This document shows positions 34,754-59,319 of a stretch of 64,000 nucleotides of DNA, in pieces (the stretch's first letter is position 1; each line of letters starts with the position of its first letter). The position numbers were made by a program, and so were the translations under genes. Source of the stretch: Rathayibacter sp. VKM Ac-2754 (GTDB lineage Bacteria; Actinomycetota; Actinomycetes; Actinomycetales; Microbacteriaceae); contig NZ_WUCC01000004.1 in the NCBI RefSeq assembly GCF_009807095.1, forward strand, positions 248,001 through 312,000, written 5' to 3'. Under the pieces are notes generated by a model. It had not been told where the DNA came from. It saw only the letters and a list, made by a program, of their open reading frames with translations, and ran no database searches.

Positions 34754-34784
34754 TGTTCACGGTAACACGATGTTGACGTCAACG
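34754..34784 (-). promoter_or_regulatory. double LacI-type operator at the promoter of the double-GH43 gene
   Basis: TGTTCACGGTAACA (34754-34767, complement TGTTACCGTGAACA) and TGTTGACGTCAACG (34771-34784) are 17 bases apart. On the minus strand TTGACG forms a -35 box with a 17-base spacer to TGAACA, so the sites cover the whole core promoter. The first is identical in sequence to the sites at 40267 and 59306. Confidence 0.8.
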
Positions 34785-34834
34785 CGATGGGTGATCTGGG
34801 CGCTTCCTCAGGCCGCGGGCAGGCTGCGCACGCC

Positions 34835-35239
34835 TCAGGAGGCGAGCTGCTGGACGCGCTGCTTCGAGAGTCCGAGGACGACACCGGCTTCGGCCTGGCT
34901 CATGTGCGTCTGGCTGAGGAGGCCCCGAACCGCCTCTCGACGCAGCAGCGCCGCGCGGGACTCCGCTTCCTCTGCCTGCGCGCGGAGCGACTCGGCCTCG
35001 CGCCAGGCGGCGGCTACCTCGGCGGGCAGCTCGTAGGCGAGGTGGATGGTCAGGTCGTCCTCGTCGACATCGAGGAGTGCGGAGACGACTCCCGTCGCCA
35101 TCGCGGGAACCTCGCGGAGGGATCGCGCCTGGGTCACCGCGTCGAGCGCCTCGACGCGGATCATCCACCAGCGCCCTTCCCGGGTCACCACTGCCTCGAA
35201 GGTCCGCTCTGTCGTGCTGAGTCGCTCCGTGCTCGTCAC
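34835..35239 (-). CDS. HicB/antitoxin-like helix-turn-helix protein
   Basis: 134 residues from GTG at 35239, chosen because AAGGAGGAGG lies 6 bases upstream. N-terminal strands TFEAVVTREGRWWMIRVEAL and helix AVTQARSLREVPAMATGVVS resemble the partial RNase-H fold of HicB-type antitoxins; a coiled-coil-like linker AEVAAAWREAESLRAQAEEA follows; the C-terminus MSQAEAGVVLGLSKQRVQQL is a helix-turn-helix. No HicA toxin adjoins it. A long perfect-looking inverted repeat just upstream (35266-35303) is a likely self-operator. Function unknown. Confidence 0.65.
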   Translation of the reverse strand: MTSTERLSTTERTFEAVVTREGRWWMIRVEALDAVTQARSLREVPAMATGVVSALLDVDEDDLTIHLAYELPAEVAAAWREAESLRAQAEEAESRAALLRREAVRGLLSQTHMSQAEAGVVLGLSKQRVQQLAS

Positions 35240-35265
35240 GATGTCCTCCTCCTTCGATGCGCCCG

Positions 35266-35303
35266 ACAATACCCCCTTGTCAAGTAAGGCAAGGGGGCAT
35301 TGT
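35266..35303. promoter_or_regulatory. 38-bp inverted repeat upstream of the HicB-like gene
   Basis: ACAATACCCCCTTG (35266-35279) and CAAGGGGGCATTGT (35290-35303) match in 13 of 14 positions around a 10-base AT-rich centre that carries TTGACA on the minus strand. Flanking bases GCGACA-like extend symmetry slightly. Candidate operator-promoter. Confidence 0.65.
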
Positions 35304-35336
35304 CGCGCCCTGGGACGCAGGTGGCGCGGAGCCGCG

Positions 35337-36374
35337 TCAGGTCTTGTTGCGGGCCATCACCGCGCGCTGCAGGAGCACGAAGACCAGGAGGATGCCTCCG
35401 GTGATGATGGTCGTCGCCTCGGGCGGGATGCCTCCGTCGCGGGTGATCAGGACGTTCATCAGACCCAGCACCAGCGCGCCGATGACCGAGCCGAGGACGA
35501 AGCCGACGCCGCCGGTGAGCAGCGTGCCTCCGATGACGGTCGCCGCGATCGCGTCGAGCTCCCAGCCGTTGCCCGTGATGTTCTGGGCGCTGCCGAGCCG
35601 GGCGGTGTAGACGACGCCGGCGAGGCCCGCCAGGGTGCCGCTGATCACGTAGATGAGCAGCTTGGTCCGCAGCACCGGGAGGCCCATCAGGGCCGCCGAC
35701 TGCTCGGATCCGCCCATCGCGTAGACGGTGCGGCCGAGGCGCGTGCGGTGCAGCACGAAGAACGCTGCAGCGACGACCAGCAGCGCGATGATCACGCCGG
35801 GGCTGATCACGAAGTCGTTGACCTTCGGGCCGTCGATCAGCTTGATCGGAGTGGCGAGGCTCAGCACGGGCGAGTCCTCGGGGAGGCGCTCCGGCACGGT
35901 GCTCAGCATCGAGGCGAGACCCCGGGCGAGGAACATCATCGCCAGCGTGGCGATGAACGGCTGCACGTTGAAGTACTGGATCAGCACGCCCGACACGAGG
36001 CCGAAGCCCGAGCCGATCAGCACCATCAGCACCATCACGAGCCAGGGGTTCCAGCCCGCGTTGATGAGCAGCACGCCGCTCACGCTGCTGAAGGCGATGA
36101 TCGCGCCGACCGAGAGGTCGATGCCTCCGGTCAGGATCACGAAGGTGAGCCCGACGGCCAGGATGATCAGGTGCGCGTTGTTGATCAGCAGGTTCGACAC
36201 GGTGCTCGCCTGCAGGATGCGGCCGTAGGCGGCCTCTCCGTAGACGATCATCGCGAGGAAGATGATCAGCGCCGCGAGGGTCGGCAGCTTGTCGAGGTGC
36301 TGGGTCAGCCACGACCGCGCCGAGGAGCGCGCGGGGCTCGTCGGAGGGGCGGATCGGGTCATCACGGCGCTCAT
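35337..36374 (-). CDS. yjfF: furanose ABC transporter permease (YjfF type)
   Basis: 345 residues from ATG at 36374, overlapping the previous permease's stop (ATGA). About nine transmembrane segments. RbsC-family signatures are [40 protein letters not shown] and TGNGWELDAIAATVIGGTLL then TGGVGFVLGSVIGA. Two unequal permease genes after one ATPase is the YtfQRT-YjfF layout, known in E. coli to import galactofuranose. In this GH43-rich setting arabinofuranose or arabinose is at least as likely. Last gene of the operon. Confidence 0.88.
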   Translation of the reverse strand: MSAVMTRSAPPTSPARSSARSWLTQHLDKLPTLAALIIFLAMIVYGEAAYGRILQASTVSNLLINNAHLIILAVGLTFVILTGGIDLSVGAIIAFSSVSGVLLINAGWNPWLVMVLMVLIGSGFGLVSGVLIQYFNVQPFIATLAMMFLARGLASMLSTVPERLPEDSPVLSLATPIKLIDGPKVNDFVISPGVIIALLVVAAAFFVLHRTRLGRTVYAMGGSEQSAALMGLPVLRTKLLIYVISGTLAGLAGVVYTARLGSAQNITGNGWELDAIAATVIGGTLLTGGVGFVLGSVIGALVLGLMNVLITRDGGIPPEATTIITGGILLVFVLLQRAVMARNKT

Positions 36375-37447
36375 GCGGGGATCGCCTCTTTCTGCGGAGC
36401 GCTGCGGCGCGCCTCGCGACGTTGAGTGAAGGCCGAGCGGACGCGCTCCGACTGCAGCAGGCAGAGCGCGACGATGACGATCGCCTTGAAGGCGGGCGTC
36501 GCCGACGACGAGACGCCGAGGAAGACGACCGTCTTGTCGAGCGTGGCGATCAGGAGGGCGCCGACGGCGGCTCCGGTGATGTTGAACTTGCCGCCCGCGA
36601 GCGAGGTGCCGCCGACCACGACGGCGAGGATCGCGTCGAGCTCGAGCTGGTAGCCCGTCCGCGACACGTCCACGGTCATCACACTGGCGGTGGCGAAGAC
36701 GCCGGCGACTCCGGCGAGCAGGCCGCTGCCGATGTAGGCGGTCATCAGGAGGCCGCTGCGGTTGATGCCGGCGAGCCGGGCCGCCTTCGGGTCCATGCCG
36801 ATCGCCTCGATCATCAGGCCGAGGGCGGTGCGGCGCACCAGCACCCCGACGACGACGACGATCGCGATGGCGAGGAGGAAGACGACGGGGAGTCCGAGGA
36901 CGTAGCCGTTCGCGATCCAGCGGAAGGGCTCGTTCGTCGCGGCGGTGTTCTGGCCGCCGGTGATCACCTTGGCGAGACCGCGGCCGGCGAGCATCACCAC
37001 GAGGGTGCTGATGAAGGGCTGGAGCCCCACGACCGAGACCAGGATGCCGTTCACCGCCCCGAGGACCCCGGCGACGAGCAGCGCGACGGCGAAGGCCGCG
37101 GCGGCGGCTCCGAGCGAGTCGGGAGCGCCGTTCGCGTTGAGGAACTCCATCGACACGGCACCGGCGACGACCATGATCGAGCCGACCGAGAGGTCGATGC
37201 CCCCGGTCGCGACCACGAGGCACATGCCGACCGCGATCATCAGGATCGGCGCTGCCGCCCTCGCGATGTCGATCACGTTGCCGACCAGGTAGCCCGTGCT
37301 CGGGCTGACCGAGACGGCCAGGTAGCTCGGATCCTTGACGACGTTGACGAGCAGCAGCAGCAGGATCGCCACCGCTCCCCAGAAGTACTGACGGCGGATC
37401 AGCCCGGAGAGGAAGGAACCCCGGCCGGGTCTGGTGTCGCTGCTCAT
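36371..37447 (-). CDS. ytfT: furanose ABC transporter permease (YtfT type)
   Basis: 358 residues. About nine transmembrane segments after a basic start (TRPGRGSFLSGLIRRQYFWG). Signatures: [60 protein letters not shown] (a loop typical of YtfT), SRTGYQLELDAILAVVVGGT then SLAGGKFN. ATGA overlap with both the ATPase gene before and yjfF after it gives tight coupling and implies a heterodimeric channel. Confidence 0.9.
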   Translation of the reverse strand: MSSDTRPGRGSFLSGLIRRQYFWGAVAILLLLLVNVVKDPSYLAVSVSPSTGYLVGNVIDIARAAAPILMIAVGMCLVVATGGIDLSVGSIMVVAGAVSMEFLNANGAPDSLGAAAAAFAVALLVAGVLGAVNGILVSVVGLQPFISTLVVMLAGRGLAKVITGGQNTAATNEPFRWIANGYVLGLPVVFLLAIAIVVVVGVLVRRTALGLMIEAIGMDPKAARLAGINRSGLLMTAYIGSGLLAGVAGVFATASVMTVDVSRTGYQLELDAILAVVVGGTSLAGGKFNITGAAVGALLIATLDKTVVFLGVSSSATPAFKAIVIVALCLLQSERVRSAFTQRREARRSAPQKEAIPA

Positions 37448-39018
37448 GATGCGGCCTCCTGCGTGGCGCCCTGGAGAACGACGACGTCCTCGTCGACGAC
37501 TCCCTCTGCGGCGATGGTAGTGACGATCGACTCCGCGGTGACAGCCGGGCCGTTGAGGATCTCCGCGATCACGCGGTGATCCTTCAGCACGATGATGCGG
37601 TCGCTGAGCCGGACGACCTCGTCGAGCTCGGACGAGATGAACACGACGGCGACGCCCTCGCCCGCGAGAGCGACGACCTTCTCCTGGATCTCGGCCTTGG
37701 CTCCCACGTCGATGCCGCGGGTGGGCTCGTCGAGGATGAGGATCTCGGGAGCGGTCGCCAGCCAGCGTCCGAGGAGGACCTTCTGCTGGTTGCCGCCGGA
37801 CAGCTTGCTGATGGGGCGGTCGGGGTCGGCCGGTCGCACGTTCAGCTCGACCAGGTACTTGCCGACGATCTCGTCCTTCTCCTTCTTGGAGAGGGGGCGG
37901 GCCCAGCCGCGCTTGGCCTGCACCGCGAGGATGAGGTTCTCGCGGACCGAGAGGTCGCGGATGATGCCCTCGTCGCGGCGGTTCTCGCTCGAGAAGGCGA
38001 TCTTGTGCGCGAGGCCGGCGGTCGGCGTGGGGATGTCGGCCTTCTTGCCGTGCAGCGTGATCTCGCCGGTGTCGGGCTTGTCGACGCCGTAGACGAGGCG
38101 CGCGAGCTCGGTGCGGCCGGAGCCGAGGAGGCCGGCGAGTCCGACGACCTCTCCGCGGTGCAGGGTGAGGTTCGTCGGCTCGATCGAGCCCTTCTTGCCG
38201 ATGCCCTGGGCGGAGTAGAGCGGCGCCTCGCGGTAGAGGTGGTCGCTGTTCTCGCGCTCCGAGTCGAGCGAGCGGAGGGCGGCGATGTCCTTGCCGATCA
38301 TCTTCGAGATGAGCGAGGTGCGATCGAGCTCCGGAGTCAGGTACTCGCCGACGTACTGGCCGTTGCGCAGCACCGTCAGGCGGTCGCTGATCGCGTAGAC
38401 CTGGTCGAGGAAGTGCGAGACGAAGAGGATCGCCACGCCCTCCGCGCGGAGGCGGCGGATGACGACGAAGAGGTTCTCGACCTCGTTCGCGTCGAGGCTC
38501 GAGGTCGGCTCGTCGAGGATCAGGACCCGGGAGTCGCTGACGGTCGAGCGGCTGATGGCGACGAGCTGCTGCATCGCGATCGACAGCGAGGCGAGCGGCC
38601 GGCGCGGGTCGAGGTGGCCGAGGCCGAGCTTCTCGAGGGCGGTGCGCGCGGCCTCGTGGGTCGCGCGCCAGTTGATGCCGAAGGGGCCCCGCACCTCGTA
38701 GCCGAGCATGACGTTCTCGCCGATGCTCAGGTTGGTGCAGAGGTTGACCTCCTGGTACACGGTCGAGATGCCGGCGGCCTGCGCATCGGCCGTGCCGTTG
38801 AGGCGCCGCGTCTCGCCGCCGACGACGATGTCGCCGCTGTCGATCCGGTAGACGCCCGTGAGCGCCTTGATGAGGGTGGACTTGCCGGCGCCGTTCTCGC
38901 CCATGAGGGTGTGGACCTCGCCCGGGAACAGGCGGAAGTCGACTCCGTCGAGGGCTTTCACGCCGGGGAAGCTGATCGAGATGTTCTTCATCTCGACGAT
39001 CGGAGGCGAACCTGTCAT
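37444..39018 (-). CDS. ytfR: furanose ABC transporter, double-domain ATPase (YtfR type)
   Basis: 524 residues. First half: Walker A GENGAGKST (about 38-46), Q-loop TVYQEVNLCTNLSIGENVML, signature LSIAMQQLVAISRS, Walker B VLILDEPTSSLDANE. Second half: degenerate P-loop GLLGSGRTELARLVYG, SSENRRDEGII, LSGGNQQKVLLGRWL and ILILDEPTRGIDVGAK. The sequence YEVRGPFGINWRATHEAART is shared with the orphan ATPase at 53045, its close paralogue. Lies 99 bases behind the binding-protein gene. Confidence 0.93.
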   Translation of the reverse strand: MTGSPPIVEMKNISISFPGVKALDGVDFRLFPGEVHTLMGENGAGKSTLIKALTGVYRIDSGDIVVGGETRRLNGTADAQAAGISTVYQEVNLCTNLSIGENVMLGYEVRGPFGINWRATHEAARTALEKLGLGHLDPRRPLASLSIAMQQLVAISRSTVSDSRVLILDEPTSSLDANEVENLFVVIRRLRAEGVAILFVSHFLDQVYAISDRLTVLRNGQYVGEYLTPELDRTSLISKMIGKDIAALRSLDSERENSDHLYREAPLYSAQGIGKKGSIEPTNLTLHRGEVVGLAGLLGSGRTELARLVYGVDKPDTGEITLHGKKADIPTPTAGLAHKIAFSSENRRDEGIIRDLSVRENLILAVQAKRGWARPLSKKEKDEIVGKYLVELNVRPADPDRPISKLSGGNQQKVLLGRWLATAPEILILDEPTRGIDVGAKAEIQEKVVALAGEGVAVVFISSELDEVVRLSDRIIVLKDHRVIAEILNGPAVTAESIVTTIAAEGVVDEDVVVLQGATQEAAS

Positions 39019-39117
39019 GCCGCGTCGTTCCGTTCTCGAGTGGCGCTTCGCTGCGCCGTAGGCCGGAGAGACCGGGACCCGCTGGGGCCCCGGTCGCTCC
39101 GCGTGGAGTGGTGCTGA

Positions 39118-40119
39118 CTAGAACTTGCGGTCGGGCAGGGCGGCCGAGGCGGCCTCGGGCGAGTCGAAGGTCTCGCTCGGGACGACGATCGAGGACTCGA
39201 CCGTCTCGCCGGCGAGGGTCGCCTCGACGGCCTCGAGGGCGGTCTCGCCGAACAGCGGGTTGTACTCGGCGACGAAGCTGAGCTTGCTGTCGGCGAGGGC
39301 CTGCAGGGCGTTCTTGGTGCCGTCGATCGTCGCGATCTTGACGTCGACGCCCGGGGTGAGTCCGGCCTCCTCGACGGCCTGGACCGCACCGAGACCCATC
39401 TCGTCGTTCTGGGCGAAGACCATCTGCACGTCGTTGTTGTTCGACTTCAGGACGGTCTCGAAGACGCTCTTCGCCTCTTCGGTCGACCAGTTGGCGGTCT
39501 GCGCGCCGACCTTGGTGAAGGCGGAGTCGGCGCCGATGACCTCGTCCCAGCCCTCGTTGCGCTCGTTGACGACCGAGACGCCCGCGGGGCCCTCGAGCGT
39601 GAAGTACTTGGCGCCGTCGGGGAACGCGGTCTTCGCCCAGTCGGCGACCGAGGTGCTGACCGCGATGTTGTCGGGCGCGATGCGGGTGACGTAGAGGTCG
39701 GTGTCGTCGGGCTCGATGCCGCGGTCGATCAGGATGACCGGGATCTCGGCCTCCTGAGCGCGCTCGAGCGAGTCCTCCCAGCCGGAGCCCTCGGTCGCCG
39801 ACAGCAGGATCACGTCGACGCCCTCGTCCACGAAGGAGGTGAAGGAGTCGATCTGCGACTTCTGGTCTCCGTTGGTGGCGGGGGCGTACTTGAGCTCGTA
39901 GCCGGCGTCCTCGGTGAACGTCTCCTCGATGTTGGTCTCGTTGGCCTGGCGCCAGGCGCCCTCGGGGCCGACGGCGACGAAGCCGATGGTGGTCAGGTCT
40001 CCGCCGGAGCCCGCGTCGGATCCTGAGTCGGACCCGCCGGAGCAGCCGGCGAGGCCGAGCGCCAGGGCGCCGACTGCTGCGAATCCGAAGAACTGGCCGA
40101 AACGCCTCGTGTTGTACAT
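39118..40119 (-). CDS. ytfQ: furanose-binding lipoprotein (YtfQ type)
   Basis: 333 residues from ATG at 40119 (AGGAGG 6 bases upstream). Lipobox LAGC at about residue 26. The mature start IGFVAVGPEGAWRQANETNI closely follows YtfQ (GFSQVGSESGWRAAETN), as do VDVILLSATEGSGWEDSLER, AEIPVILIDRGIEPDDTDLY, the ligand loop NEGWDEV and AQNDEMGLGAVQAVEEAGLT with IDGTKNALQAL. These receptors select the furanose form of a sugar. First gene of the operon; its promoter carries the TGTTACCGTGAACA operator, linking uptake to the GH43 genes. Confidence 0.92.
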   Translation of the reverse strand: MYNTRRFGQFFGFAAVGALALGLAGCSGGSDSGSDAGSGGDLTTIGFVAVGPEGAWRQANETNIEETFTEDAGYELKYAPATNGDQKSQIDSFTSFVDEGVDVILLSATEGSGWEDSLERAQEAEIPVILIDRGIEPDDTDLYVTRIAPDNIAVSTSVADWAKTAFPDGAKYFTLEGPAGVSVVNERNEGWDEVIGADSAFTKVGAQTANWSTEEAKSVFETVLKSNNNDVQMVFAQNDEMGLGAVQAVEEAGLTPGVDVKIATIDGTKNALQALADSKLSFVAEYNPLFGETALEAVEATLAGETVESSIVVPSETFDSPEAASAALPDRKF

Positions 40120-40266: not shown

Positions 40267-40280
40267 TGTTACCGTGAACA
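40267..40280 (-). promoter_or_regulatory. LacI-type operator at the ytfQRT-yjfF promoter
   Basis: TGTTACCGTGAACA on the + strand. On the minus strand TTGCGT and TAACAT, 18 bases apart, form the likely promoter, and the operator spans the -10 box, the usual position for repression. Confidence 0.8.
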
Positions 40281-40350
40281 ATTCTTGTGACGCAACAGCG
40301 TCGTCGACGGGTCGTGTAACGGTTGGGTACGTCGTGCCGGGTGGTGCGTC

Positions 40351-40962
40351 TCAGCCCCGCGTCACCGGCTGACGGAGGATCGTCCGGAGCTTCTCGGGAG
40401 CGGCCCGTCTCGGGTCGCCGAGGTAGATCTCGTGGTGCTTCCCCGTCATCCGGAGCCCGCTGGCCGGGAGGAAGTCGTCGTGCATCGCCGCGAGGACGGG
40501 GCCCTCGGCGTCGTAAGGGCCGAGGTGGAGGGTCTGCACGGCGAGGCCCTCGTCGAGGGTGGCCGTGCGGAGGCGGTCGAGCGCGGGCACCTTGTGGCGG
40601 ACGGCGCCGACCGACTCCGCGACGTGCTCGTCGGTGAGCCAATCGGGAGTCAGGATCATGGCCGTCCAGCTCCACCGGGCCTTGTCGCGGGCGCTGGTGA
40701 AAGCGCTCATGTCGTCCGACCACCACAGCGCCTCGAGCGGCATCACCGTGTAGTCGCGGCCGAGGTCGTTCTTGCTGAGGAACTTGAGCGCGTAGGCCAC
40801 GGGGTAGAGCGTGGCGACGGCGTCGGAGTAGGCGGTCGCGGTGTTCGGATCGCCGTGTCCGTCGATCATGAGGAAGCGGGCGGGCACGACCTCGACGACC
40901 TCGAACCGGCCGTGCGGCGCGCGGTAGGTCGCGATCCGCTTCTTGAGGTCGAGCGTCGCCAT
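40351..40962 (-). CDS. GyrI-like small-molecule-binding domain protein
   Basis: 203 residues. Start ATLDLKKRIATYRAPHGRFE, then VVEVVPARFLMIDGHGDPNT; LYPVAYALKFLSKND; VMPLEALWWSDDMSAFTSAR; QTLHLGPYDAEGPVLAAMHD; GKHHEIYLGDPRRAAPEKLR. This is the stand-alone GyrI-like (SOUL/BacTR fold) group, in which the two-repeat domain binds drugs or hydrolyses toxic small molecules; the conserved Glu/Trp pair EALWW and H-x-G-P-Y are present. No regulatory DNA-binding domain. Alone after a 44-base gap from the amidohydrolase gene, so possibly cotranscribed with it. Confidence 0.82.
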   Translation of the reverse strand: MATLDLKKRIATYRAPHGRFEVVEVVPARFLMIDGHGDPNTATAYSDAVATLYPVAYALKFLSKNDLGRDYTVMPLEALWWSDDMSAFTSARDKARWSWTAMILTPDWLTDEHVAESVGAVRHKVPALDRLRTATLDEGLAVQTLHLGPYDAEGPVLAAMHDDFLPASGLRMTGKHHEIYLGDPRRAAPEKLRTILRQPVTRG

Positions 40963-41006
40963 CGTGTCCTCCGGAACACCATGATGCCGCCGCGATCGAT
41001 GCGGCG

Positions 41007-42215
41007 TCAGACGAGGATGCCGCCCGCGGCGACGACGCGGCCGCGGTGCACCACGAGGCGGTCGGGGTCGCGGTCCATCACGGCGGCGGTCGGGGTGTCG
41101 CCGCGGAGGACGACGAGCTCGGACGGGTCGCCGACGGCGAGGCCCGGGCGGTCGTCGACGGAGGCGAGGCGGTGCAGCCCGCCGTCGATGACGGAGGCTC
41201 CTCCCCAGGTCGCGACGGCGAGCGCGTGCTCGATGTCGACGTCGTCGTCGAAGCCCTGGCCGTGCGAGAGCAGGAACGCGCGCTCGAGCATGTCGCCGTT
41301 GCCCCACGGCGACCAGTAGTCGCGCTGGCCGTCCATGCCGAGGCCGACGCGGACGCCTGCGGCGAGCAGATCGAGCAGGGGGAGCTCGGCGCCGTGGCCG
41401 GGGGCGATCGTGGTGAGCGCGACGTCGAGGGAGGCGAGCGTCTCGATCGCGGCGGCGACGCCGCGATCGGGTGAGGACAGGGCGAAGGCGTGCGAGATCG
41501 AGACGCGGCCCTGCAGGCCGTGGGCGCGGATCCGCTCGGCGATCAGGTCCATCGAGAACAGGCCGAGCGAGCCGCGCTCGTGCAGGTGGATGTCGAGACC
41601 GACGCCGTGCTTCTCGGCGAGGGCGAAGACGGCGTCGAGGTGGCGCACCGGATCGCGGTCGATCTCGCACGGGTCGATGCCGCCGATCAGGTCGCCGCCG
41701 AGCGAGAGGGCCTCGTCGAGCAGCTCGACGACTCCGGGCTCGACGAAGACGCCGACCTGGGGGAACACGACGATCTCGACGTCGGCGCGATCGCGGTGCG
41801 CCTCGCGGGCGGCGAGCACGCCCTCGAACTTCTCGAGCCCGGAGTCGGCATCGACCTGCGCGTGACTGCGGACGCGGGTCGCGCCCTTCTCGATCATGGT
41901 GCGGAGGGTCGCGGTCGCGCGGTCGGCGACCGGGGCCTCGGCGCTGCGCCAGTGCGCGCGGTCGTTCATGATGCGACCCCAGCGCCCCTCCTCTCCGGTG
42001 CGCGGACGGAAGGGCAGGCCGAGCCGGGTGGAGTCGAGGTGCACGTGGACGTCCGAGAAGGAGGGGACCAGGATGCCGCCGCGGCCGTCGACGACCGAGT
42101 CGGCGCTGCCCTCGCCGACCGGGGCGATCGCGAGGATGCCGGTCTCGTCGACGACGACGTCGCGCGCCTCGCCTCCCCAGGGGCGGACGTCGCGGAGGAG
42201 CGTGGTGTTCGGCAT
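41007..42215 (-). CDS. cytosine-deaminase-like amidohydrolase
   Basis: 402 residues. Metal and catalytic motifs in order: VHVHLDSTRLG (about 55-62), RSHAQVDAD, IHLHERGSLGLF with catalytic Glu, SHAFALSS and GMDGQRDYWSPWGNGDMLER, which follows the CodA pattern HxDxxxDPWYPxGxxxML. So it is a cytosine-deaminase/N-isopropylammelide-type hydrolase acting on a cyclic or amide-bearing N compound. The last metal Asp is in GMDG. It lies directly before a dipeptide-type ABC transporter on the same strand with a 43-base gap, so its substrate is probably imported by it. Confidence 0.83.
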   Translation of the reverse strand: MPNTTLLRDVRPWGGEARDVVVDETGILAIAPVGEGSADSVVDGRGGILVPSFSDVHVHLDSTRLGLPFRPRTGEEGRWGRIMNDRAHWRSAEAPVADRATATLRTMIEKGATRVRSHAQVDADSGLEKFEGVLAAREAHRDRADVEIVVFPQVGVFVEPGVVELLDEALSLGGDLIGGIDPCEIDRDPVRHLDAVFALAEKHGVGLDIHLHERGSLGLFSMDLIAERIRAHGLQGRVSISHAFALSSPDRGVAAAIETLASLDVALTTIAPGHGAELPLLDLLAAGVRVGLGMDGQRDYWSPWGNGDMLERAFLLSHGQGFDDDVDIEHALAVATWGGASVIDGGLHRLASVDDRPGLAVGDPSELVVLRGDTPTAAVMDRDPDRLVVHRGRVVAAGGILV

Positions 42216-42258
42216 GGGGTGGAGCCTTTCAGATCGAGGAGGAGTCGGCGGCAAGCGG

Positions 42259-43779: not shown

Positions 43780-43794
43780 GAGAGGTTCCTTCGG

Positions 43795-47472: not shown

Positions 47473-47512
47473 GGCGCCGCCTCCGTTCGTGTGGGTGCCG
47501 GTCGTGCTGTCG

Positions 47513-47720: not shown

Positions 47721-47737
47721 GAGCGAAGGAGGACGAC

Positions 47738-48733: not shown

Positions 48734-48786
48734 CCGCGAGCGCGCCGACCCGCTTGAATAGGAGGAGTCGAGCGAAGGAGGCCCGC

Positions 48787-49452: not shown

Positions 49453-49578
49453 CGGCAGTGGGTCTCGACACGCCCCCGCGGGGCTGCTCGACCAGCAGCC
49501 AGGCGGGGGAGTCCTCTTGCCGCCTGCCTGCTGATCGAGTAGCCCGCGCAGCGGGCGTATCGAGATCCCCCTCCGTCA
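49451..49578. repeat. pair of inverted palindromic repeat units (GATACGCC family)
   Basis: Unit GTGGGTCTCGACACGCC...GGGGCTGCTCGACCAGC (49459-49496) faces its complement CTGATCGAGTAGCCCGC... GCGGGCGTATCGAGATC (49531-49567). Fills the spacer between the GntR and PL11 genes. Confidence 0.75.
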
Positions 49579-49589
49579 GCGGGTGATGC

Positions 49590-52196: not shown

Positions 52197-52262
52197 TGAA
52201 TCCCTCGGCATCGATGGTGCCGGGCTGCAGGAATGCGCTTTCCCCGGCCGTGCCACCCTATG

Positions 52263-52274
52263 TGAAACCTTTCA
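52263..52274. promoter_or_regulatory. LacI-type operator TGAAACCTTTCA upstream of the PL11 gene
   Basis: Perfect arms TGAAA/TTTCA around CC, 67 bases before the PL11 start, of the kind bound by rhamnose/pectin LacI regulators (TGAAACGTTTCA class). Differs from the TGTTACCGTGAACA sites, so PL11 belongs to another regulon. Confidence 0.6.
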
Positions 52275-52319
52275 GAGAGGTCAACATCCGCCGAGTCGGC
52301 CGGCTTGCGGGCTGATGAC

Positions 52320-52695: not shown

Positions 52696-53035
52696 TGCTG
52701 GTCGAGCCCGCAGCCCCGCAGGGGCGTATCGGGACCCGCCACCATCAGCAGATCAGGGCCTTGACCCGGCATTCTGACGCTGGTGGATCTCGATACGCCC
52801 GCTGCGCGGGCTACTCGATCAGCAAGACTGAGGCGATACCGGTGAGGTGAATCCTGACTCGGCCTTCGGACGCTGGTGGATCTATTTGGAGGAGATCATC
52901 CGCAAGCCTGTTGGTCGAGTAGCCCCGGAGGGGCGTATCGAGACCCACCACCGTCAGCAGATCGGAACGCCGATCCGCAGGTCTGAAGCTGGTGGATCTC
53001 GATACGCCCGCTGCGCGGGCTACTCGATCAGCGAG
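52696..53035. repeat. cluster of GATACGCC-family inverted repeat units
   Basis: At least four units: 52696-52740 and 52908-52965 read CTGGTCGAGxAGCCCxxxxGGGGCGTAT-type, while 52773-52826 and 52983-53035 carry the facing version GGTGGATCTCGATACGCC then GCTGCGCGGGCTACTCGATC. A partial unit (GGACGCTGGTGGATCT) is at 52867-52882. The pairs face each other, giving long hairpins. No gene in 52656-53044. Confidence 0.8.
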
Positions 53036-53044
53036 GGGCGCTGC

Positions 53045-54619
53045 TCACCAGCCGTCGTCGGAGTCGGCCTCGTCGGAGGTGTCGGCGGCGATCATCTCGA
53101 CGATGGTGTCGACGGTCAGCCACGGGCCGTTGCTGACCTCGCCGATCTTCTCGCGGTCCTTGAAGACGACGATGCGGTCGCTGAGGCGCACCACCTCCTC
53201 GAGCTCGGAGGAGATGTAGACGACCGACACGCCCTCCTTCGCGAGCTGCGCGATGTGCGCCTGGATCTCGACCTTCGACGCGACGTCGATGCCGCGCGCG
53301 GGCTCGTCGAGCACGAGCAGGCGCGGCCGGGTGGCGAGCCAGCGCGCGAGGACCACCTTCTGCTGGTTGCCTCCGGAGAGGTACTTGACCGGCAGGTCCG
53401 GGTCGGCCGGAGTGATGTTGAGCGCCTCGACGTAGGTCGCGACGAGCGTGTCCGTCTCGGCCGCCGACAGCGGGTGCGCCCAGCCGCGCAGCGCCTGCAG
53501 GCCCAGCACGAGGTTCTCGCGGAGGGAGAGGTCGCCGATGATGCCGTCCTCGCGGCGGTTCTCGCTCGAGTGGGCGATGCGGTGGCGCAGGCCCGACACC
53601 GGGTCGGTGATCTGCGCGGGCTCGCCGTCGATCAGCACCCGGCCGCTGTCGGCCTTCTCCACTCCGCTGAGGAGGGAGGCGAGCTCGGTGCGCCCGGAGC
53701 CGCGCAGCCCCGCGAAGCCCACGATCTCGCCGCGGTGCAGCTCCAGATCGGTCGGCGCGACCGCTCCGCGCCGGCCGATGCCGTACGCGCGGTAGATCGC
53801 AGGCCCGGTCGGCTGCCGGCGGTGCTCGCGGCGGTCGGAGCCGATCTGCCGCAGCGCCTCGATGTCCTCGCCGATCATCTTCGCGATCAGCTCCGCGCGG
53901 TCCATCGCGCGCGCCGGGTACTCGCCGACGGTGCGGCCGTCGCGCAGCACCGTCACCCGGTCGGACAGCGTGAGGACCTGCTCGAGGAAGTGCGACACGA
54001 ACACGATCGCGACGCCCTGGTCGCGCAGCCTCCGCAGCACGGCGAACAGGCGTGCCACGTCGCCGAGGTCGAGGCTCGACGTCGGCTCGTCGAGGATCAG
54101 CACCCGGGGCCGGTCGACCATGGCGCGGCCGATGGCGACCAGCTGGCGGATGGCGGGGGAGAGGGAGCGCAGCGGCAGGTGCGGGTCGAGGTCTCCGAGG
54201 CCGAGCTCGGCGAGCATCTCGGCCGCTCTGGCGTGGGTGCGCGACCACGAGATGCCGAGGCGGCCGCGGATCTCGTGGCCGATCATCACGTTCTCGCCGA
54301 TGCTGAGGTTGTCGGTCAGCCGCTCGTCCTGGAAGACGGCGGTGATGCCGGCCGCCTTCGCATCGGCGGGCCCGGAGAAGCGGCGCGCGACTCCGTCGAG
54401 CACGATCGAGCCGGCATCGGGCTGGTGGATGCCGGTGAGGGTCTTGATCAGCGTCGACTTGCCGGCGCCGTTCTCGCCCATCAGCCCGTGGATCTCGCCC
54501 GGGACCAGCCGCAGACTCGCCCCCGCGAGCGCCGGGCCCGAGGAGAAGGCGACGCTGATGCCCGACATCTCGACCACGGGGTCGGCGCATCTCGGAGTCG
54601 TCCTCGACTGGAATGCCAC
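53045..54619 (-). CDS. orphan YtfR-like double-domain sugar ABC ATPase
   Basis: 524 residues. First half: Walker A GENGAGKST, Q-loop TAVFQDERLTDNLSIGENVM, signature LSPAIRQLVAIGRAM, Walker B VLILDEPTSSLDLGD. Second half: GLRGSGRTELASLLSG, SSENRREDGII, LSGGNQQKVVLARWL and LLVLDEPARGIDVASK. The stretch IRGRLGISWSRTHARAAEML parallels IRGPFGINW-type sequence in the ATPase at 37444, so the two are paralogues of equal length. There is no permease or binding protein beside it; it sits between a repeat cluster and the LacI gene. It may serve the ytfQ/ytfT/yjfF system under other conditions or be what is left of a second transporter. Confidence 0.88.
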   Translation of the reverse strand: MAFQSRTTPRCADPVVEMSGISVAFSSGPALAGASLRLVPGEIHGLMGENGAGKSTLIKTLTGIHQPDAGSIVLDGVARRFSGPADAKAAGITAVFQDERLTDNLSIGENVMIGHEIRGRLGISWSRTHARAAEMLAELGLGDLDPHLPLRSLSPAIRQLVAIGRAMVDRPRVLILDEPTSSLDLGDVARLFAVLRRLRDQGVAIVFVSHFLEQVLTLSDRVTVLRDGRTVGEYPARAMDRAELIAKMIGEDIEALRQIGSDRREHRRQPTGPAIYRAYGIGRRGAVAPTDLELHRGEIVGFAGLRGSGRTELASLLSGVEKADSGRVLIDGEPAQITDPVSGLRHRIAHSSENRREDGIIGDLSLRENLVLGLQALRGWAHPLSAAETDTLVATYVEALNITPADPDLPVKYLSGGNQQKVVLARWLATRPRLLVLDEPARGIDVASKVEIQAHIAQLAKEGVSVVYISSELEEVVRLSDRIVVFKDREKIGEVSNGPWLTVDTIVEMIAADTSDEADSDDGW

Positions 54620-54719
54620 GTGCCGTCCTCGGTTCGTGTCGGGCGCGCCGTCGGGAACGGAACGCCAGGGTGCCGCCGATGATACGCGAGCGCGGCCCCG
54701 CGGATCACCCCCTCCCGCG

Positions 54720-55721
54720 TCAGGCGCGCGGGGGAGCCGTCGACTCGCGGACGACGAGCTCGGTGGGGATGCGGGTGCGCTGCGGGATCTCCTGGCCGCG
54801 GATCCGCGCGTGGATCACCTCGGCGACAGTGGTGCCGAGCCGGTCGAAGTCCTGCCGCACCGTCGTGAGGGGAGGCAGGAAGTGCCGCGCGGTCGGCAGG
54901 TCGTCGAAGCCGACGATGCTGACGTCCTCGGGAACGCGGATGCCGCGCTCGACGAGTCCGTGGATCACTCCGAGCGCCATCTCGTCGTTCGCGACGACCA
55001 TGGCGGTGAAGTCGGGGACCGAGCGCAGGCTCTTCGCGAAGTCGTAGCCGGAGTCGGGGGTCCAGTCGCCGACGACGATCGGGCGCTCGTGCATCCCCCA
55101 CTCCTTCGCGCGGGTGTGGAAGGCGCGCTCGCGGGCGCGCGCGTCGAGCCAGTCGAGGGGGCCCGAGAGGTGCAGCACGTCGCGGTGCCCGAGCGAGGCG
55201 AGGTGGTCGACGGCCTGGCTCATGCCGCCCTGCTGATCGACCGAGACGGTGAGGAAGCTCGGGTCCTTGTCGGACTTGACGACCAGGGTCGGCACGCCGA
55301 TCTCGACGGTGCGCAGCGTCGCGACGGAGGAGGAGCGCGGCGCGATCACGCACAGCGCGTCGATCCCGAGGCCCGACAGGTGGTTGATGGCGTCGACCGG
55401 CGACATGTCCTGGTCGTCGCGGAGGGCGACGGAGGTGACCGAGTAGCCCTTCTCGCGGGCGGCCCGCTCGATCGCGCGCAGGGTGCTCGAGGGGCCGAAC
55501 TCGGCTCCGCTCTCGATCATCACGCCGATGCGGTCGGTGCGCTGGGTGACGAGCGAGCGGGCGGCGATGTTGGGCCGGTAGTTGAGCTCGTCGACGGCCT
55601 CGAGGACCTTCTGCCGGGTCGACTCCTTGATGTTCGGGTGCCCGCTGAGCACCCGCGACACCGTCATGTGCGAGACGCCCGCGACCGCGGCGACATGGCG
55701 GAGGTTCGGCCGATCGGCCAT
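54720..55721 (-). CDS. LacI-family transcriptional regulator
   Basis: 333 residues. The helix-turn-helix NLRHVAAVAGVSHMTVSRVL (about 6-25) and hinge helix IAARSLVTQRT are complete, with Tyr/Gln positions replaced by His-Met-Thr in the recognition helix. The sugar-binding domain has IGVMIESGAEFGPSSTLRAI, GIDALCVIAPRSSSVATLRT, VDQQGGMSQAVDHLASLGHR, VVANDEMALGVIHGLVERGI and IVGFDDLPTARHFLPPLTTV. Lies 100 bases downstream of the start of the orphan ATPase and 0.5 kb from a GH43 gene with an upstream operator. It is the only LacI gene in the window and the candidate regulator of the TGTTACCGTGAACA sites. Confidence 0.93.
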   Translation of the reverse strand: MADRPNLRHVAAVAGVSHMTVSRVLSGHPNIKESTRQKVLEAVDELNYRPNIAARSLVTQRTDRIGVMIESGAEFGPSSTLRAIERAAREKGYSVTSVALRDDQDMSPVDAINHLSGLGIDALCVIAPRSSSVATLRTVEIGVPTLVVKSDKDPSFLTVSVDQQGGMSQAVDHLASLGHRDVLHLSGPLDWLDARARERAFHTRAKEWGMHERPIVVGDWTPDSGYDFAKSLRSVPDFTAMVVANDEMALGVIHGLVERGIRVPEDVSIVGFDDLPTARHFLPPLTTVRQDFDRLGTTVAEVIHARIRGQEIPQRTRIPTELVVRESTAPPRA

Positions 55722-55847
55722 GAGAGGACCTCCTCCGCTCCCCGGGCGGGTGAGCCGCGCACCCCCGGTGCGGGCGAGGTCGGGTGCCGGCGCCGTCGAG
55801 AGTGCGTCCAGCATAGTCAAGCAGGGTTGCGCGGCCGCGGCCTGCAT

Positions 55848-56167
55848 GCTGGTCGAGTAGCCCGCAGGGGCGTATCGAGCGACGAGAAGTCGGCCCCTGT
55901 CGCCGCCCATGCTGGTCGAGCAGCCCCGCAGGGGCGTATCGAGACCCGCGAGCTTCAGGAGACCAAGCGCCTGACCGGGTCTTCTGAAGGACGTGGATCT
56001 CGATACGCCGCGTTCCGCGGCTACTCGATCAGCGAGGAGGGGCCACACGCAGGAGGCCACTCTTCTCGACAGACCCACCAGCTTCAGTGGATCATACTTC
56101 TGACCTGGACTTCTGAAGCTGGTGGATCTCGATACGCCCGCTGCGCGGGCTACTCGATCAGCGAGGA
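55848..56167. repeat. large cluster of GATACGCC-family repeat units
   Basis: Units at 55848-55887, 55909-55957 (CTGGTCGAGxAGCCC orientation) and 55982-56037, 56112-56167 (GTGGATCTCGATACGCC orientation), plus a fragment CCACCAGCTTCAG at 56072. Together they fill the spacer 55722-56205 between the LacI gene and the GH43 gene; I see no gene there. They would fold into long hairpins and could end transcription of the GH43 gene. Confidence 0.85.
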
Positions 56168-56205
56168 GTGGGCGGCCTCAGCTGACAGCGGGCCGCTGCG
56201 AGGGG

Positions 56206-59133
56206 TCAGCCGCAGCTCCGCGCGGCGTACGGTGCCGTGGTCGTCGCGGTGACGGGGGCGCCTCCGACGGTCGCCGTCGCGGTGACCGCGGCCTCGCCCG
56301 CGGCGAGCTGCGCCGCGCGCACGGTGTACGCGGCCGAGGCGCTCGAGCCCGGCTTCACGGCGGTGAACGTCTTCACGCCCTCCGCCGTCCGCACGGTCAC
56401 GTCCATCGGCACGGTGTCGCCGTTCTTCGCGACGACCGTCAGCACCGGCTTGCCCGCGACGCAGCGCGAGGAGGCGGTGGCCGTGACCTTCAGCGACGCC
56501 TGGACGGTGACCGTGGCGGTCACCGGCATCCGCGACGCGTCCTGCGCGACTCCCGAGACCGTGAAGGTCCCGGCTGCGGCGTAGGAGCTCGGCGCGACGG
56601 CGTCCCACGTGACTCCGACCGACTGCCTCGCACCGGTCTTCGTCGTGATCTCGGCGCCGGGGAGCACGGGCGCGGTGCCCGCCTTGGTCGTCACCGCGAT
56701 CGGAGCGACCGAGGCCACCGCGATCGAGGGCGCGAAGCCCTCGAGCACCTTCTGGTACTCGGCGCGGGTCACCGGGATGACCGTGCCGTGGCGGGGCGTC
56801 CCTCCGTCGGAGTTCTGCGGGAGGTTCGTCCGCAGCTTCGCTCCGAGCGGCTGCCACGAGTCGCCGTCCGCCAGGTCGTCGGAGCCGAACGGGATGTAGT
56901 GGTTCGGGCCGGCGTGGTAGTCGGGCTGGTCGATGAACAGGAACCAGTCGAGTCCGTTCACGTCGCCCTCGTTCGCCGGGAACACGTTGGGGCCCTCACC
57001 GCTCGTGAAGGTGCCGCCGGGCTCGCCGTTGGGCAGGCCCGAGGCGACGCGCTCCTTGACCAGGGTCCACTCGTCCGCGGGCCCCGTGGTGCCGGGCAGT
57101 GTGCCGCTCACGGTGGCGAGCAGATCCGTGCTCTTCTCCTCGCGCAGCGTCATCGACGCCTCGTCCTTGGTGAAGCGGTAGTAGGTGTCGCCGTCCTTCG
57201 CGATCGTCGAGTCGATGGTGCCCCGGCCGGTGCCGCGCTTGACGTCGATCCACGGCTTCGCCTCCGAGAAGGTGACGAAGTCGTCGGTCGTCGCGTACAT
57301 CATCTGGTTGTAGGTGACCGCGGTGCGGTCGGCCGCGTTCGTCGTCGGGTACATGTTCGAGGCCCAGAACACCACGTAGGTGTCGAGCTCGTCGTCCCAG
57401 TACGCCTCCGGGGCCCAGGTGTTGCCGGCGAAGTCGGTCGAGACCTTCACGTGGCGCTGCGCCGACCAGTCGACGAGGTCGGTCGACTCCCACACCTCGA
57501 TGTACTTCGAGCCCGACTTCTGGGCCGTGTCGAAGCCGCCGGCGAGGCCGTCGATCTTGAGGTCGGTGGCGAGCATGAAGAACGTGTCGCCCTCGGGGGA
57601 GCGGACGATGAACGGGTCGCGCAGGCCCTGAGTGCCCTGCGTCGAGGTGAACACCGGCTGGCCGCTGTTGAGCGTGTTCCAGCTCAGCGCGTCGTCGCCC
57701 TTCGAGGCGGCGAGGCTGACGCGCTCGGCGCCGGCGCCCTCACCGGTGAAGAAGGCCCACACGTAGGCCTCGGTGTCCTCGGTGCCGGTGGGGAGCGGCT
57801 GGAGGCGCAGCGTGAAGTCGCGCGTCTTCACGACGGATCCGCTGGTCGCCGTCGCTCGGACCACGACGTCGGTCGCCGGGGAGCTCGCCTGCGGCCGGTC
57901 GACGACGATCGTGCGGCTGTCGGCGGTGCTGCCGGCGCGCACGGTGGTGGTGCTCGATCCGACGACGCTCCACTCGATGCTGGAGCCGAGCGCGCCGCGC
58001 GCGGGCACCGAGACGTTCGTGCGGACGTTGGAGGCGTTCGGGATGCTGATCGCGTCGAGGTCGCGCTGGGCCTTGTCGGCGTCGGCGACGTCGGCGACGA
58101 CCTTCACGAGGTAGTCGACCGAGCGGGTGTCGGTGCCCGAGGTGTAGGTCGCGGTGAGCACGACGGAGGCGTCGGGGGAGCCGGCCGCGGGGCGGGTGAC
58201 CGCAGCGGTCGCTCCGCTCACCGCGATCGCCGGGCTGTTCGAGCGCCAGGTGATGGCGACCCCGGAGGAGCTGGCGGGCAGCGCGAAGTCGGCCGTCGCC
58301 TCCGTCGGGATCGTCACCGAGGCGACGGCGCGGTCGAGGGCCTCGGAGGAGTAGAGCGCCTTCACGGCGTCGGCGCTGAGCGCGCTGCCGTAGACGGCGA
58401 AGTCGTCCACGTCGCCGCTCCAGCCGGGGTCGTTGTAGGTGGAGCGCGCGAGGTAGGCGACGAGGGAGGTGCCGAACGAGGCGACATCGCGCGCGATCGC
58501 GTTCTGGCTGATGCGGGTGCCGTTGAGGTAGACCGACAGGGTCCCGGTCGTGCCGTCGATGACGGTCGTGTAGAGCGAGAGGCCCGACGGGGTGCGGGCT
58601 CCCGTGGTGCCGGCGTTGGTCGATCCGGGCCCGACCTCGGTGCCCCACGGCGCGCCCGCGTTCACGGAGTTCGTGACGACCGACTTCACGTAGCCCGACG
58701 GGTTGCTCGGGTTGAGCAGCCAGTAGCCGGACGAGTTCGAGGCGCCGGAGGCGACGGGCGCGCCCACGAAGGCCGCTGCGACGTTGCCGGGGCCCGAGCG
58801 GGGCGAGAGCCAGGTCGAGAACGTGAGGTCCTTCTTGCCGACGAGGCCCGCCGTGGGGATGTCGAGGTAGGGGGCGGCCGAGGCGGAGCCGCCGGGAAGG
58901 CTGATCAGCCCGTCGCGGAACGTGGCGCCGGTGCGACGCAGCGTCGCGTCGTAGCCGTTGCCGCTCGAGTCGGCGACCGTCGTGCCGGTCGGCGCGGTGT
59001 CGAAGGTGTAGTGCAGGAGGGGCTGCTCCGTCGCTCCGGAGGCGGAGGCGGGAACCGTGGCGCCGAGCAGCGCCGTGGCAGCGACGGTGGCGACCGCCAG
59101 AGCGGTCCTCACCGCCGATCGTGATCGTGTCAT
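56206..59133 (-). CDS. secreted LamG-Ig-GH43 arabinan-type hydrolase
   Basis: 975 residues from ATG at 59133 (GAGGA about 10 bases upstream). Signal peptide to about 32; LamG domain about 38-240 (LLHYTFDTAPTGTTVADSSG); Ig-like domains about 250-410; GH43 about 415-815 with acids in LRDPFIVRS, IDSTIAKDG and GEGPNVFPAN, and TWAPEAYWDDELDTYVVFWA; a Big_4-type Ig domain (SVGVTWDAVAPSSYAAAG) about 820-880; then a 92-residue C-terminal domain beginning SSRCVAGKPVLTVV and ending SCG. The same domain closes the proteins at 30377 and 59384. An operator lies 73 bases upstream. Likely extracellular arabinofuranosidase or arabinanase. Confidence 0.88.
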   Translation of the reverse strand: MTRSRSAVRTALAVATVAATALLGATVPASASGATEQPLLHYTFDTAPTGTTVADSSGNGYDATLRRTGATFRDGLISLPGGSASAAPYLDIPTAGLVGKKDLTFSTWLSPRSGPGNVAAAFVGAPVASGASNSSGYWLLNPSNPSGYVKSVVTNSVNAGAPWGTEVGPGSTNAGTTGARTPSGLSLYTTVIDGTTGTLSVYLNGTRISQNAIARDVASFGTSLVAYLARSTYNDPGWSGDVDDFAVYGSALSADAVKALYSSEALDRAVASVTIPTEATADFALPASSSGVAITWRSNSPAIAVSGATAAVTRPAAGSPDASVVLTATYTSGTDTRSVDYLVKVVADVADADKAQRDLDAISIPNASNVRTNVSVPARGALGSSIEWSVVGSSTTTVRAGSTADSRTIVVDRPQASSPATDVVVRATATSGSVVKTRDFTLRLQPLPTGTEDTEAYVWAFFTGEGAGAERVSLAASKGDDALSWNTLNSGQPVFTSTQGTQGLRDPFIVRSPEGDTFFMLATDLKIDGLAGGFDTAQKSGSKYIEVWESTDLVDWSAQRHVKVSTDFAGNTWAPEAYWDDELDTYVVFWASNMYPTTNAADRTAVTYNQMMYATTDDFVTFSEAKPWIDVKRGTGRGTIDSTIAKDGDTYYRFTKDEASMTLREEKSTDLLATVSGTLPGTTGPADEWTLVKERVASGLPNGEPGGTFTSGEGPNVFPANEGDVNGLDWFLFIDQPDYHAGPNHYIPFGSDDLADGDSWQPLGAKLRTNLPQNSDGGTPRHGTVIPVTRAEYQKVLEGFAPSIAVASVAPIAVTTKAGTAPVLPGAEITTKTGARQSVGVTWDAVAPSSYAAAGTFTVSGVAQDASRMPVTATVTVQASLKVTATASSRCVAGKPVLTVVAKNGDTVPMDVTVRTAEGVKTFTAVKPGSSASAAYTVRAAQLAAGEAAVTATATVGGAPVTATTTAPYAARSCG

Positions 59134-59205
59134 CAAGAACGTCCTCGTGGTCGATGCGGCGACGGAGGCGCGATCCACGACGGACCTGTGCGCCCTCGCA
59201 CGGAT

Positions 59206-59319
59206 TGTTAACGTGAACACCATAGGTCCGCGGGACTCTCCTCGACCAGCCCCCGAGGGCCGCGAAGCGGGACGCCTCTCGACGATTGACCGCGTCCACG
59301 GGCGCTGTTACCGTGAACA
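59206..59319. promoter_or_regulatory. two LacI-type operators in the divergent GH43 promoter
   Basis: TGTTAACGTGAACA (59206-59219) faces the minus-strand GH43 gene and TGTTACCGTGAACA (59306-59319) the plus-strand one. Exactly 100 bases separate the starts, so looping by a LacI tetramer or two dimers is possible. A TTGACC -35 box (59286) precedes the second site. Confidence 0.8.

What the first reader, a model, noticed from the sequence alone, without database searches (positions are those of the whole stretch)
34754..59319. A single 14-bp operator ties GH43 enzymes to a furanose transporter across 25 kb
TGTTACCGTGAACA is present exactly at 34754 (reverse), 40267 and 59306, with variants TGTTAACGTGAACA at 59206 and TGTTGACGTCAACG at 34771. 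Each lies at a promoter of a secreted GH43 gene or of ytfQRT-yjfF; two overlap a plausible -35/-10. One LacI gene (54720) is present. This defines an arabinan/arabinofuranoside regulon visible from sequence alone.
Basis: partly seen in the sequence, partly recalled or inferred. Interest (0 to 1): 0.75.

Follow-up and report, generated by a model that had tools for sequence, protein, structure and literature searches.

The report
LacI-controlled plant arabinan-use regulon
A short DNA switch sits in front of secreted arabinan-cutting enzymes and a sugar importer in an actinobacterium, and comparison with relatives points to the repressor that probably works it; this is a solid new example of a familiar kind of sugar control.

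Summary
TGTTACCGTGAACA occurs exactly at 34754(-), 40267 and 59306; TGTTAACGTGAACA at 59206. The 14-mer has four exact copies in the 3.97-Mb genome (Rathayibacter, inferred), all within 33 kb; the fourth precedes a GH127 beta-L-arabinofuranosidase gene just past the window, and a one-mismatch copy precedes an arabinofuranosidase-like gene on C11. In 15 genomes of the genus TGTTAMCGTGAACA has 58 sites, reversed control 0. The genome has 33 LacI genes, not one, yet 54720 is the best candidate: orthologues stand beside the same kind of operator and ytfQ in relatives, it alone of the 33 has recognition residues His-Met, and the 13 genomes with an orthologue are the 13 with sites. The forecast of sites at araBAD fails: the ara genes have another LacI and another operator. 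A third LacI with very similar operators lies by GH35/GH30 genes, and 34771 resembles that type. Verdict: a conserved LacI regulon for extracellular arabinan breakdown and arabinofuranose import, on which I found no paper in the held library; new member of a known kind. Side find: a conserved extra ABC ATPase between LacI and ytfQ.

The parts
34754..34767 (-). operator TGTTACCGTGAACA, 60 nt before GH43A
   Evidence: TGTTAMCGTGAACA in 13 of 13 aligned GH43A upstream regions
34771..34784 (.). second palindrome TGTTGACGTCAACG, 3 nt from the first; perhaps a site of the GQ-type LacI, or part of the -35 region
   Evidence: TTGACGTSAACA kept in 10 of 13 rows; GQ-type motif TGTTSACGTSAACA
30377..34693 (-). 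GH43A: Laminin_G_3 + aBig_2 + two GH43 stretches, signal peptide by eye
   Evidence: Pfam; nearest solved chains are GH43 xylanase/xylosidase/arabinofuranosidase entries
40267..40280 (+). operator TGTTACCGTGAACA before ytfQ (in gene direction TGTTCACGGTAACA), overlapping a TTGC-18-TAACAT promoter-like pair
   Evidence: a TGTTNNCGNNAACA site within 260 nt upstream of ytfQ in 65 of 80 loci
39118..40119 (-). ytfQ/gafA, probable furanose-binding protein
   Evidence: Peripla_BP_4; closest solved chains 6hbd/6hbm, then 2vk2 and 5ocp
37444..39018 (-). ytfR/gafB ATPase
36371..37447 (-). ytfT/gafC permease
35337..36374 (-). yjfF/gafD permease
59206..59219 (+). operator TGTTAACGTGAACA, 72 nt before GH43B
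   Evidence: same kind of place before GH43B in G004
56206..59133 (-). GH43B: GH43-like with Laminin_G_3, aBig_2, Big_4
   Evidence: GH43 below the curated cut-off; best NCBIfam model alpha-arabinofuranosidase, below its cut-off
59306..59319 (+). operator TGTTACCGTGAACA before GH43C
59384..61567 (+). GH43C: GH43 + ricin-type lectin (start codon uncertain)
   Evidence: nearest solved chain 3akf, putative secreted alpha-L-arabinofuranosidase II
54720..55721 (-). LacI-family protein with recognition residues His-Met
53045..54619 (-). second YtfR-like ABC ATPase, directly downstream of LacI

Best explanation
The 14-bp palindrome is the operator of the LacI-family protein encoded at 54720-55721. 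Without inducer the repressor sits on the operator, which overlaps the core promoter, and blocks transcription of (a) secreted alpha- and beta-L-arabinofuranosidase/arabinanase-type enzymes (three GH43-type genes here, GH127 just outside, an arabinofuranosidase-like gene on C11) and (b) gafABCD (ytfQRT-yjfF), which would import L-arabinofuranose before it turns into the pyranose. A sugar released from arabinan, most likely L-arabinose or its furanose form, would lift repression. Shown by computation: the sites, their conservation and places, and the linkage of this LacI to them. Inferred: binding, repression, promoter overlap, inducer, enzyme and transporter specificities. The cytoplasmic ara genes are outside this regulon.
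For: Placement: 6 of 6 TGTTAMCGTGAACA sites of G000 lie 59-147 nt before GH43-type, GH127 or ytfQ genes. Genus: 58 sites in 13 of 15 genomes, reversed control 0; of the 52 outside G000, 45 lead into homologues of the same genes (one at only 38% identity), 4 into a further GH43 gene (2 of the 4 run through Pfam, 2 judged by eye), 1 into an ORF with a signal-like start cut by a contig end, 2 unexplained. Footprint: the 14-mer stands out in diverged upstream DNA of GH43A (13 of 13 rows) and ytfQ (10 of 11 rows TGTTCACGGTAACA, the other TGTTCCCGGTAACA). Regulator: LacI orthologue (72-98% identity; in G005 split over two frames) in the same 13 genomes that have sites; G002 and G003 (best 41%) have none. 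In G001 the order is LacI - ATPase2 - operator - ytfQ; in G006 and G010 an operator lies between LacI and divergent GH43C. Among 80 ytfQ loci 65 have a nearest LacI within 3.8 kb upstream: 54 of the 57 with His-Met have TGTTNNCGNNAACA before ytfQ, 0 of the 8 with His-Gln do. Two of the 8 with His-Gln, read by eye, show a TGTG half instead (L107, L133), as the three His-Met exceptions show one TGTT half (L077, L125, L127). Of 33 LacI genes only this one is His-Met. Transporter: close to proteins described with L-arabinofuranose and D-galactofuranose.
Against: No operator was found upstream of LacI 54720 itself in the window (best score there is background), although 12 of 58 relative LacI rows have one. 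In the window the LacI gene lies 14.6 kb from the ytfQ start. In G007 a different LacI (38%) is divergent from ytfQ across the operator. G002 and G003 may simply lack the target genes (not tested), so their lack of sites is weak evidence. Two sites, in G001 and G005, lead into an unexplained ORF of about 150 residues. Some Microbacterium loci carry a second His-Met LacI (54-55% identity); in L115, L117 and L137 a TGTTGACGTCAACA site lies near it, so His-Met alone does not fix the operator. No binding or expression data.
Confidence: 0.82

Rival explanations
1. Another of the 33 LacI proteins, first of all the GQ-type LacI at C19:177454-178491, reads these operators too or instead; the operators differ by only a base or two per half.
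For: GQ-type sites TGTTSACGTSAACA share the half TGTTCAC; the site at 34771 and one before a GH43A paralogue in G005 (TGTTGACGTGAACA) are GQ-like.
Against: The two sets segregate: G003 has the GQ LacI and a GQ site but no His-Met LacI orthologue and no TGTTAMCGTGAACA site; GQ sites occur in 14 of 14 genomes with the GQ orthologue and in 0 of 1 without. This rests on one discordant genome.
Confidence: 0.1
2. Dual control at GH43A: the paired sites 34754/34771 let the arabinan (HM) and the GQ repressor both gate this enzyme.
For: Fixed 3-nt spacing and conservation in 10 of 13 GH43A upstream regions; the GQ LacI stands next to ABC sugar and GH35 genes, with more sites before a GH30 gene.
Against: 34771 deviates from the GQ pattern at one outer base; conservation may instead reflect a -35 box (TTGACG).
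Confidence: 0.35
3. The 14-mer is a repeated element without regulatory role, copied along with the genes.
For: The targets share modules (LamG, Big) and could have arisen by duplication.
Against: Flanks of the sites are diverged while the 14-mer is kept; a site of the same kind also precedes the unrelated ytfQ in 65 of 80 actinobacterial loci.
Confidence: 0.02

Closest known systems
AauR / AbfR / BauR LacI regulons of Bifidobacterium (PMC5928203; abstract and section 9 read)
   Same: LacI-family local repressors predicted to control GH43 and other arabinofuranosidases/arabinanases (AauR, AbfR) or beta-L-arabinofuranoside enzymes (BauR) together with an ABC importer.
   Different: Those importers are predicted arabino-oligosaccharide systems; here it is the monosaccharide furanose importer GafABCD, and alpha- and beta-type enzymes share one operator. 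Their motifs and protein sequences were not compared.
GafABCD (ytfQRT-yjfF) furanose importer (PMC10191376; passages and sections 15 and 20 read)
   Same: All four genes present; binding protein close to crystallised GafA proteins; lies among arabinofuranosidase genes, as that paper reports for several bacteria.
   Different: In E. coli the operon is said there to be regulated by AraC; here a LacI is implicated, and an extra ATPase gene is linked.
LacI recognition code by residues 15/16 and operator bases 4/5 (PMC2978694; abstract, sections 7 and 9 read)
   Same: The residue pair goes with the operator: HM and GQ with TGTT halves, YQ and HQ with TGTG halves next to them.
   Different: Its table for the HM class was not available to me, so this is not a test of that table.

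Membership tests
LacI-family repressor | N-terminal LacI HTH plus periplasmic-binding-like sugar domain | tested here: met
   PF00356 63.1 bits, PF13377 131.5 bits
LacI-family repressor | CG-centred palindromic operator in upstream regions of linked genes | tested here: met
LacI-family repressor | binds the operator and is released by a sugar | not testable with these tools
   no experiment possible
GafABCD (YtfQRT-YjfF) importer | binding protein, double-NBD ATPase and two permeases in one operon | tested here: met
GafABCD (YtfQRT-YjfF) importer | binding protein is specific for furanoses | tested here: inconclusive
   sequence closest to 6hbd/6hbm, but 195 bits against the NCBIfam YtfQ cut-off of 510
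GH43 | GH43 catalytic domain in GH43A and GH43C | tested here: met
   218 and 159 bits against a cut-off of 32.2
GH43 | GH43 catalytic domain in GH43B and the C11 gene | tested here: inconclusive
   GH43B 21.2 bits, below cut-off; C11 gene no GH43 Pfam hit; both match an NCBIfam alpha-arabinofuranosidase model below its cut-off
GH127 beta-L-arabinofuranosidase (outside window) | GH127 catalytic domain | tested here: met
   PF07944 252 bits; 8k7x beta-L-arabinofuranosidase E 4e-178
AauR/AbfR/BauR orthologue | orthology to the bifidobacterial regulators | not tested
   no sequences of them were fetched

The most novel reading that the evidence does not exclude
The extra ATPase encoded between LacI and ytfQ is not a spare transport motor but a regulatory partner: an ABC ATPase freed from its permeases that reports transporter traffic to, or tunes, the His-Met LacI repressor (as MalK does to MalT in enterobacteria, recalled). 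It lies on one side of a branch apart from YtfR, occurs in 48 of 80 ytfQ loci, beside a His-Met LacI in 47 of the 48 (the other is cut by a contig end), and its first-domain motifs vary while YtfR's are nearly fixed. Six loci with a His-Gln LacI carry another ATPase, a third clade, on the opposite strand next to that LacI, so a LacI-ATPase pair beside ytfQ is seen in two forms. Against: 9 loci with a His-Met LacI of at least 50% identity lack it, so it is not needed for the operator to be kept.
Probability: 0.12. Interest if true: 0.65.

Novelty: new member of a known kind. Interest (0 to 1): 0.4.

Why it matters
It gives a testable regulator-operator pair for plant arabinan use across actinobacteria (sites before ytfQ in Rathayibacter, Clavibacter, Microbacterium, Glycomyces, Jiangella and others), suggests that hydrolysis plus furanose uptake and cytoplasmic arabinose catabolism are under separate LacI proteins, and offers a natural set of sister LacI proteins (HM, GQ, YQ, HQ) whose operators differ by one or two bases per half, useful for testing the LacI recognition code. 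The conserved LacI-linked extra ATPase is an open question made visible.

Tried and rejected
One search used a wrong frame for LacI (54720-55722), and one search used the same wrong translation for its LacI 54720 rows; both are void and were redone with 54720-55721. A regex caught 17 helices in the 30 LacI loci then held, and misread minus-strand loci; one search covers all 33 (its letters for L021 and L237 are off, the printed helices read IS and AS, and L026 reads RQ before TVT; none is HM). The ATPase tree had left out six opposite-strand ATPases by a strand filter; they were added. Strict sigma-70 scans gave nothing. The araA (C12) and GH51 (C2) loci were checked for the operator: none. 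Literature: no held paper had Rathayibacter+LacI+operator or ytfQ+LacI+Actinobacteria+regulon; from their listings, searches showed nothing on this regulon. Of PMC4052901 I saw passages only. CRP-like sites were considered for the TGTGA palindromes and set aside, by reasoning alone, because these are 14 bp and CG-centred.
Full report
Observation. In the whole genome (3,972,026 bases, 24 contigs; the window is C19:248001-312000) the 14-mer has four exact copies, all on C19 between 282754 and 315736, and two one-mismatch copies (59206 in the window and C11:17272); the reversed control has none. The looser palindrome TGTTNNCGNNAACA has ten places, control none.

The organism. ytfQ is 95% identical to that of Rathayibacter sp. 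Leaf185, and the genome search offered 14 further genomes as the same genus (80 were asked for). The genus name is thus inferred, not given.

Targets in this genome. GH43A (30377-34693), gafABCD/ytfQRT-yjfF (35337-40119), GH43B (56206-59133), GH43C (59384-61567), a GH127 gene 3.8 kb beyond the window (L007:10810-14952) and a gene on C11 (start about L009:9346; I submitted it from 9343, one residue early) whose only NCBIfam match is an alpha-arabinofuranosidase model below its cut-off. Operator-to-start distances are 60, 147, 72, 64, 73 and about 59 nt (sequence). A neighbouring GH43-like gene at window 61743 (L007:4743-7382) has no such site. Nearest solved chains: GH43C to 3akf, named putative secreted alpha-L-arabinofuranosidase II; GH127 to 8k7x, beta-L-arabinofuranosidase; GH43A to GH43 xylanase, xylosidase and arabinofuranosidase entries; GH43B to none at E 1e-4. 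The label 'arabinan' therefore rests on family, not on assay.

Conservation in the genus. TGTTAMCGTGAACA: 58 sites in 13 of 15 genomes, reversed control 0. I fetched 40 stretches, which hold all 52 sites outside G000, and placed the sites by tblastn: 45 precede homologues of the six targets (one of them at 38% identity; one, GH43A in G014, was placed by its start), 4 precede a roughly 1,100-residue GH43 gene (Pfam run on 2 of the 4; the other 2 judged alike by eye), 1 precedes an ORF with a signal-like start cut by a contig end (G005) and 2 (G001, G005) precede an unexplained ORF of about 150 residues. In alignments the operator is the kept island in 13 of 13 GH43A rows; in 10 of 11 ytfQ rows as TGTTCACGGTAACA, with TGTTCCCGGTAACA in the other (G012); in 6 of 7 GH127 rows (G009 lacks it). 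The 10 GH43C rows are less clean: the site shifts in place, G009 has TGTTACCGGGAACA, and in G007 and G014 it lies beyond the 215 nt aligned.

Which LacI. The genome has 33 LacI-type HTH matches over the cut-off, so presence in the window proves little. Four lines point to 54720. First, synteny: in G001 the order is LacI - ATPase2 - operator - ytfQ; in G006 LacI - ATPase2 - rhamnogalacturonan lyase - operator - ytfQ; in the window strain and in G004, G007, G008, G010, G011 and G013 a longer stretch separates ATPase2 from ytfQ. Second, breadth: of 80 ytfQ loci (the best 80 of 102), 57 have a LacI of at least 50% identity within 3.8 kb upstream on the same strand, 54 of them with TGTTNNCGNNAACA within 260 nt upstream of ytfQ; 8 have a LacI below 50%, none with the site; 7 have no such LacI although enough DNA is held (4 with the site, which are Rathayibacter L058-L061, where LacI lies further off; 3 without); 8 have too little upstream DNA (7 with the site). 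Third, recognition residues: sorted by the two residues before TVSR, 54 of 57 His-Met loci have the site and 0 of 8 His-Gln loci do; of the 33 LacI genes here only 54720 is His-Met. Read by eye, the three His-Met exceptions have palindromes with one TGTT half, and two His-Gln loci whose upstream DNA was printed have TGTG halves. A caveat: some Microbacterium loci hold a second His-Met LacI, in three of them near TGTTGACGTCAACA. Fourth, co-occurrence: 13 genomes with an orthologue, the same 13 with sites, 2 with neither. In G005 the LacI matches in two frames; it was left as found.

Sister regulons. TGTTSACGTSAACA tracks the GQ-type LacI at C19:177454: 14 of 14 genomes with the orthologue have sites, 1 of 1 without has none; G003 has this pair but not the His-Met pair. 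Here its sites lie between that LacI and an ABC sugar operon with a GH35 gene, and before a GH30 gene; a galactan role is inferred. TGTGACCGTTCACA lies at C12:12278, between a YQ-type LacI and the ara genes (araA by Pfam; araB and araD named by eye), at the 5' edge of the listed araB ORF. TGTGANCGNTCACA occurs in 15 of 15 genomes, and the exact TGTGACCGTTCACA in all 15; the reversed control gives one forward and one reverse count in G002. The neighbours of these sites in the other 14 genomes were not examined.

Mechanism. The ytfQ operator overlaps the -10 of a conserved TTGC-18-TAACAT pair, which suits occlusion of RNA polymerase by a LacI repressor, but the consensus scan reported no promoter there; binding, repression and the inducer are inferred. 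YtfQ is closest to 6hbd/6hbm, which PMC10191376 (passages and two sections read) describes as a GafA protein seen with D-galactofuranose and L-arabinofuranose; it scores well below the NCBIfam YtfQ cut-off, so the substrate is likely, not shown.

Extra ATPase. 53045-54619 is 59% identical to YtfR. Of 80 loci 48 have such a gene, aligned over at least 450 columns, upstream of ytfQ; with the window copies, 49 ATPase2 and 77 YtfR rows fall on two sides of one branch (support 100, quick method, several long branches). With six opposite-strand ATPases from His-Gln loci added, ATPase2 (97), YtfR (98) and these six (100) each hold together. ATPase2 goes with a LacI of at least 50% identity, all His-Met, in 47 of 48 loci; 10 loci with such a LacI (9 His-Met, 1 His-Gln) lack it. 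YtfR's first Walker A is GENGAGKST in 77 of 77, ATPase2's in 34 of 49. Its role is unknown; a spare motor for GafCD is the plain guess.

Known or new. Bifidobacterial LacI regulons for arabino-oligosaccharides (PMC5928203) are the nearest known kind. In the held library, searches found no paper and the listings of 23, 67, 68, 83 and 84 showed none on this operator or on a LacI of ytfQ in these bacteria; subscription papers and RegPrecise were not searched, so it may be known there.

Noticed in passing
window 53045-54619: Second YtfR-like ABC ATPase with no permease gene beside it, co-directional with and directly after LacI; present in 48 of 80 actinobacterial ytfQ loci as a clade of its own.
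   Followed up: partly
window 40351-52300: Between ytfQ and the ATPase2-LacI pair lie genes that look like a peptide ABC operon, an amidohydrolase and a GntR regulator (by eye) and a PL11 rhamnogalacturonan lyase; G001 lacks this stretch and G006 has only the lyase, so the locus may have grown stepwise.
   Followed up: partly
C12:8000-13400 (L240): araBDA-like operon with its own YQ-type LacI and site TGTGACCGTTCACA; the exact site occurs in 15 of 15 genomes of the genus.
   Followed up: partly
C18:41092-43132: HQ-type LacI with TGTGATCGCTCACA between it and sugar ABC genes (by eye); the exact palindrome occurs in 13 of 15 genomes.
   Followed up: no
C18:49296 (L045:7297): TGTTTGCGTGAACA just before another GH43 gene; an off-consensus site that could belong to either TGTT-type LacI.
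   Followed up: no
L107, L133 (upstream of ytfQ): Loci whose LacI is His-Gln have TGTG-half palindromes (TGTGAGCGCTCACA, TGTGACCGGTAACA) where His-Met loci have TGTT: a natural swap of residue and base (by eye).
   Followed up: partly
window 59325-59346: Terminator-like hairpin on the minus strand between the 59306 operator and GH43C (1 found, 0.1 expected).
   Followed up: no
L227 and L225: In G005 LacI and ytfR, and in G014 ytfR, match in two frames; assembly error or decay.
   Followed up: no
window 52750-53010 and 55840-56170: Dispersed repeat of about 50 bp (ctggtggatctcgatacgcc...gctactcgatcagcgag) flanks the LacI-ATPase2 pair (by eye).
   Followed up: no
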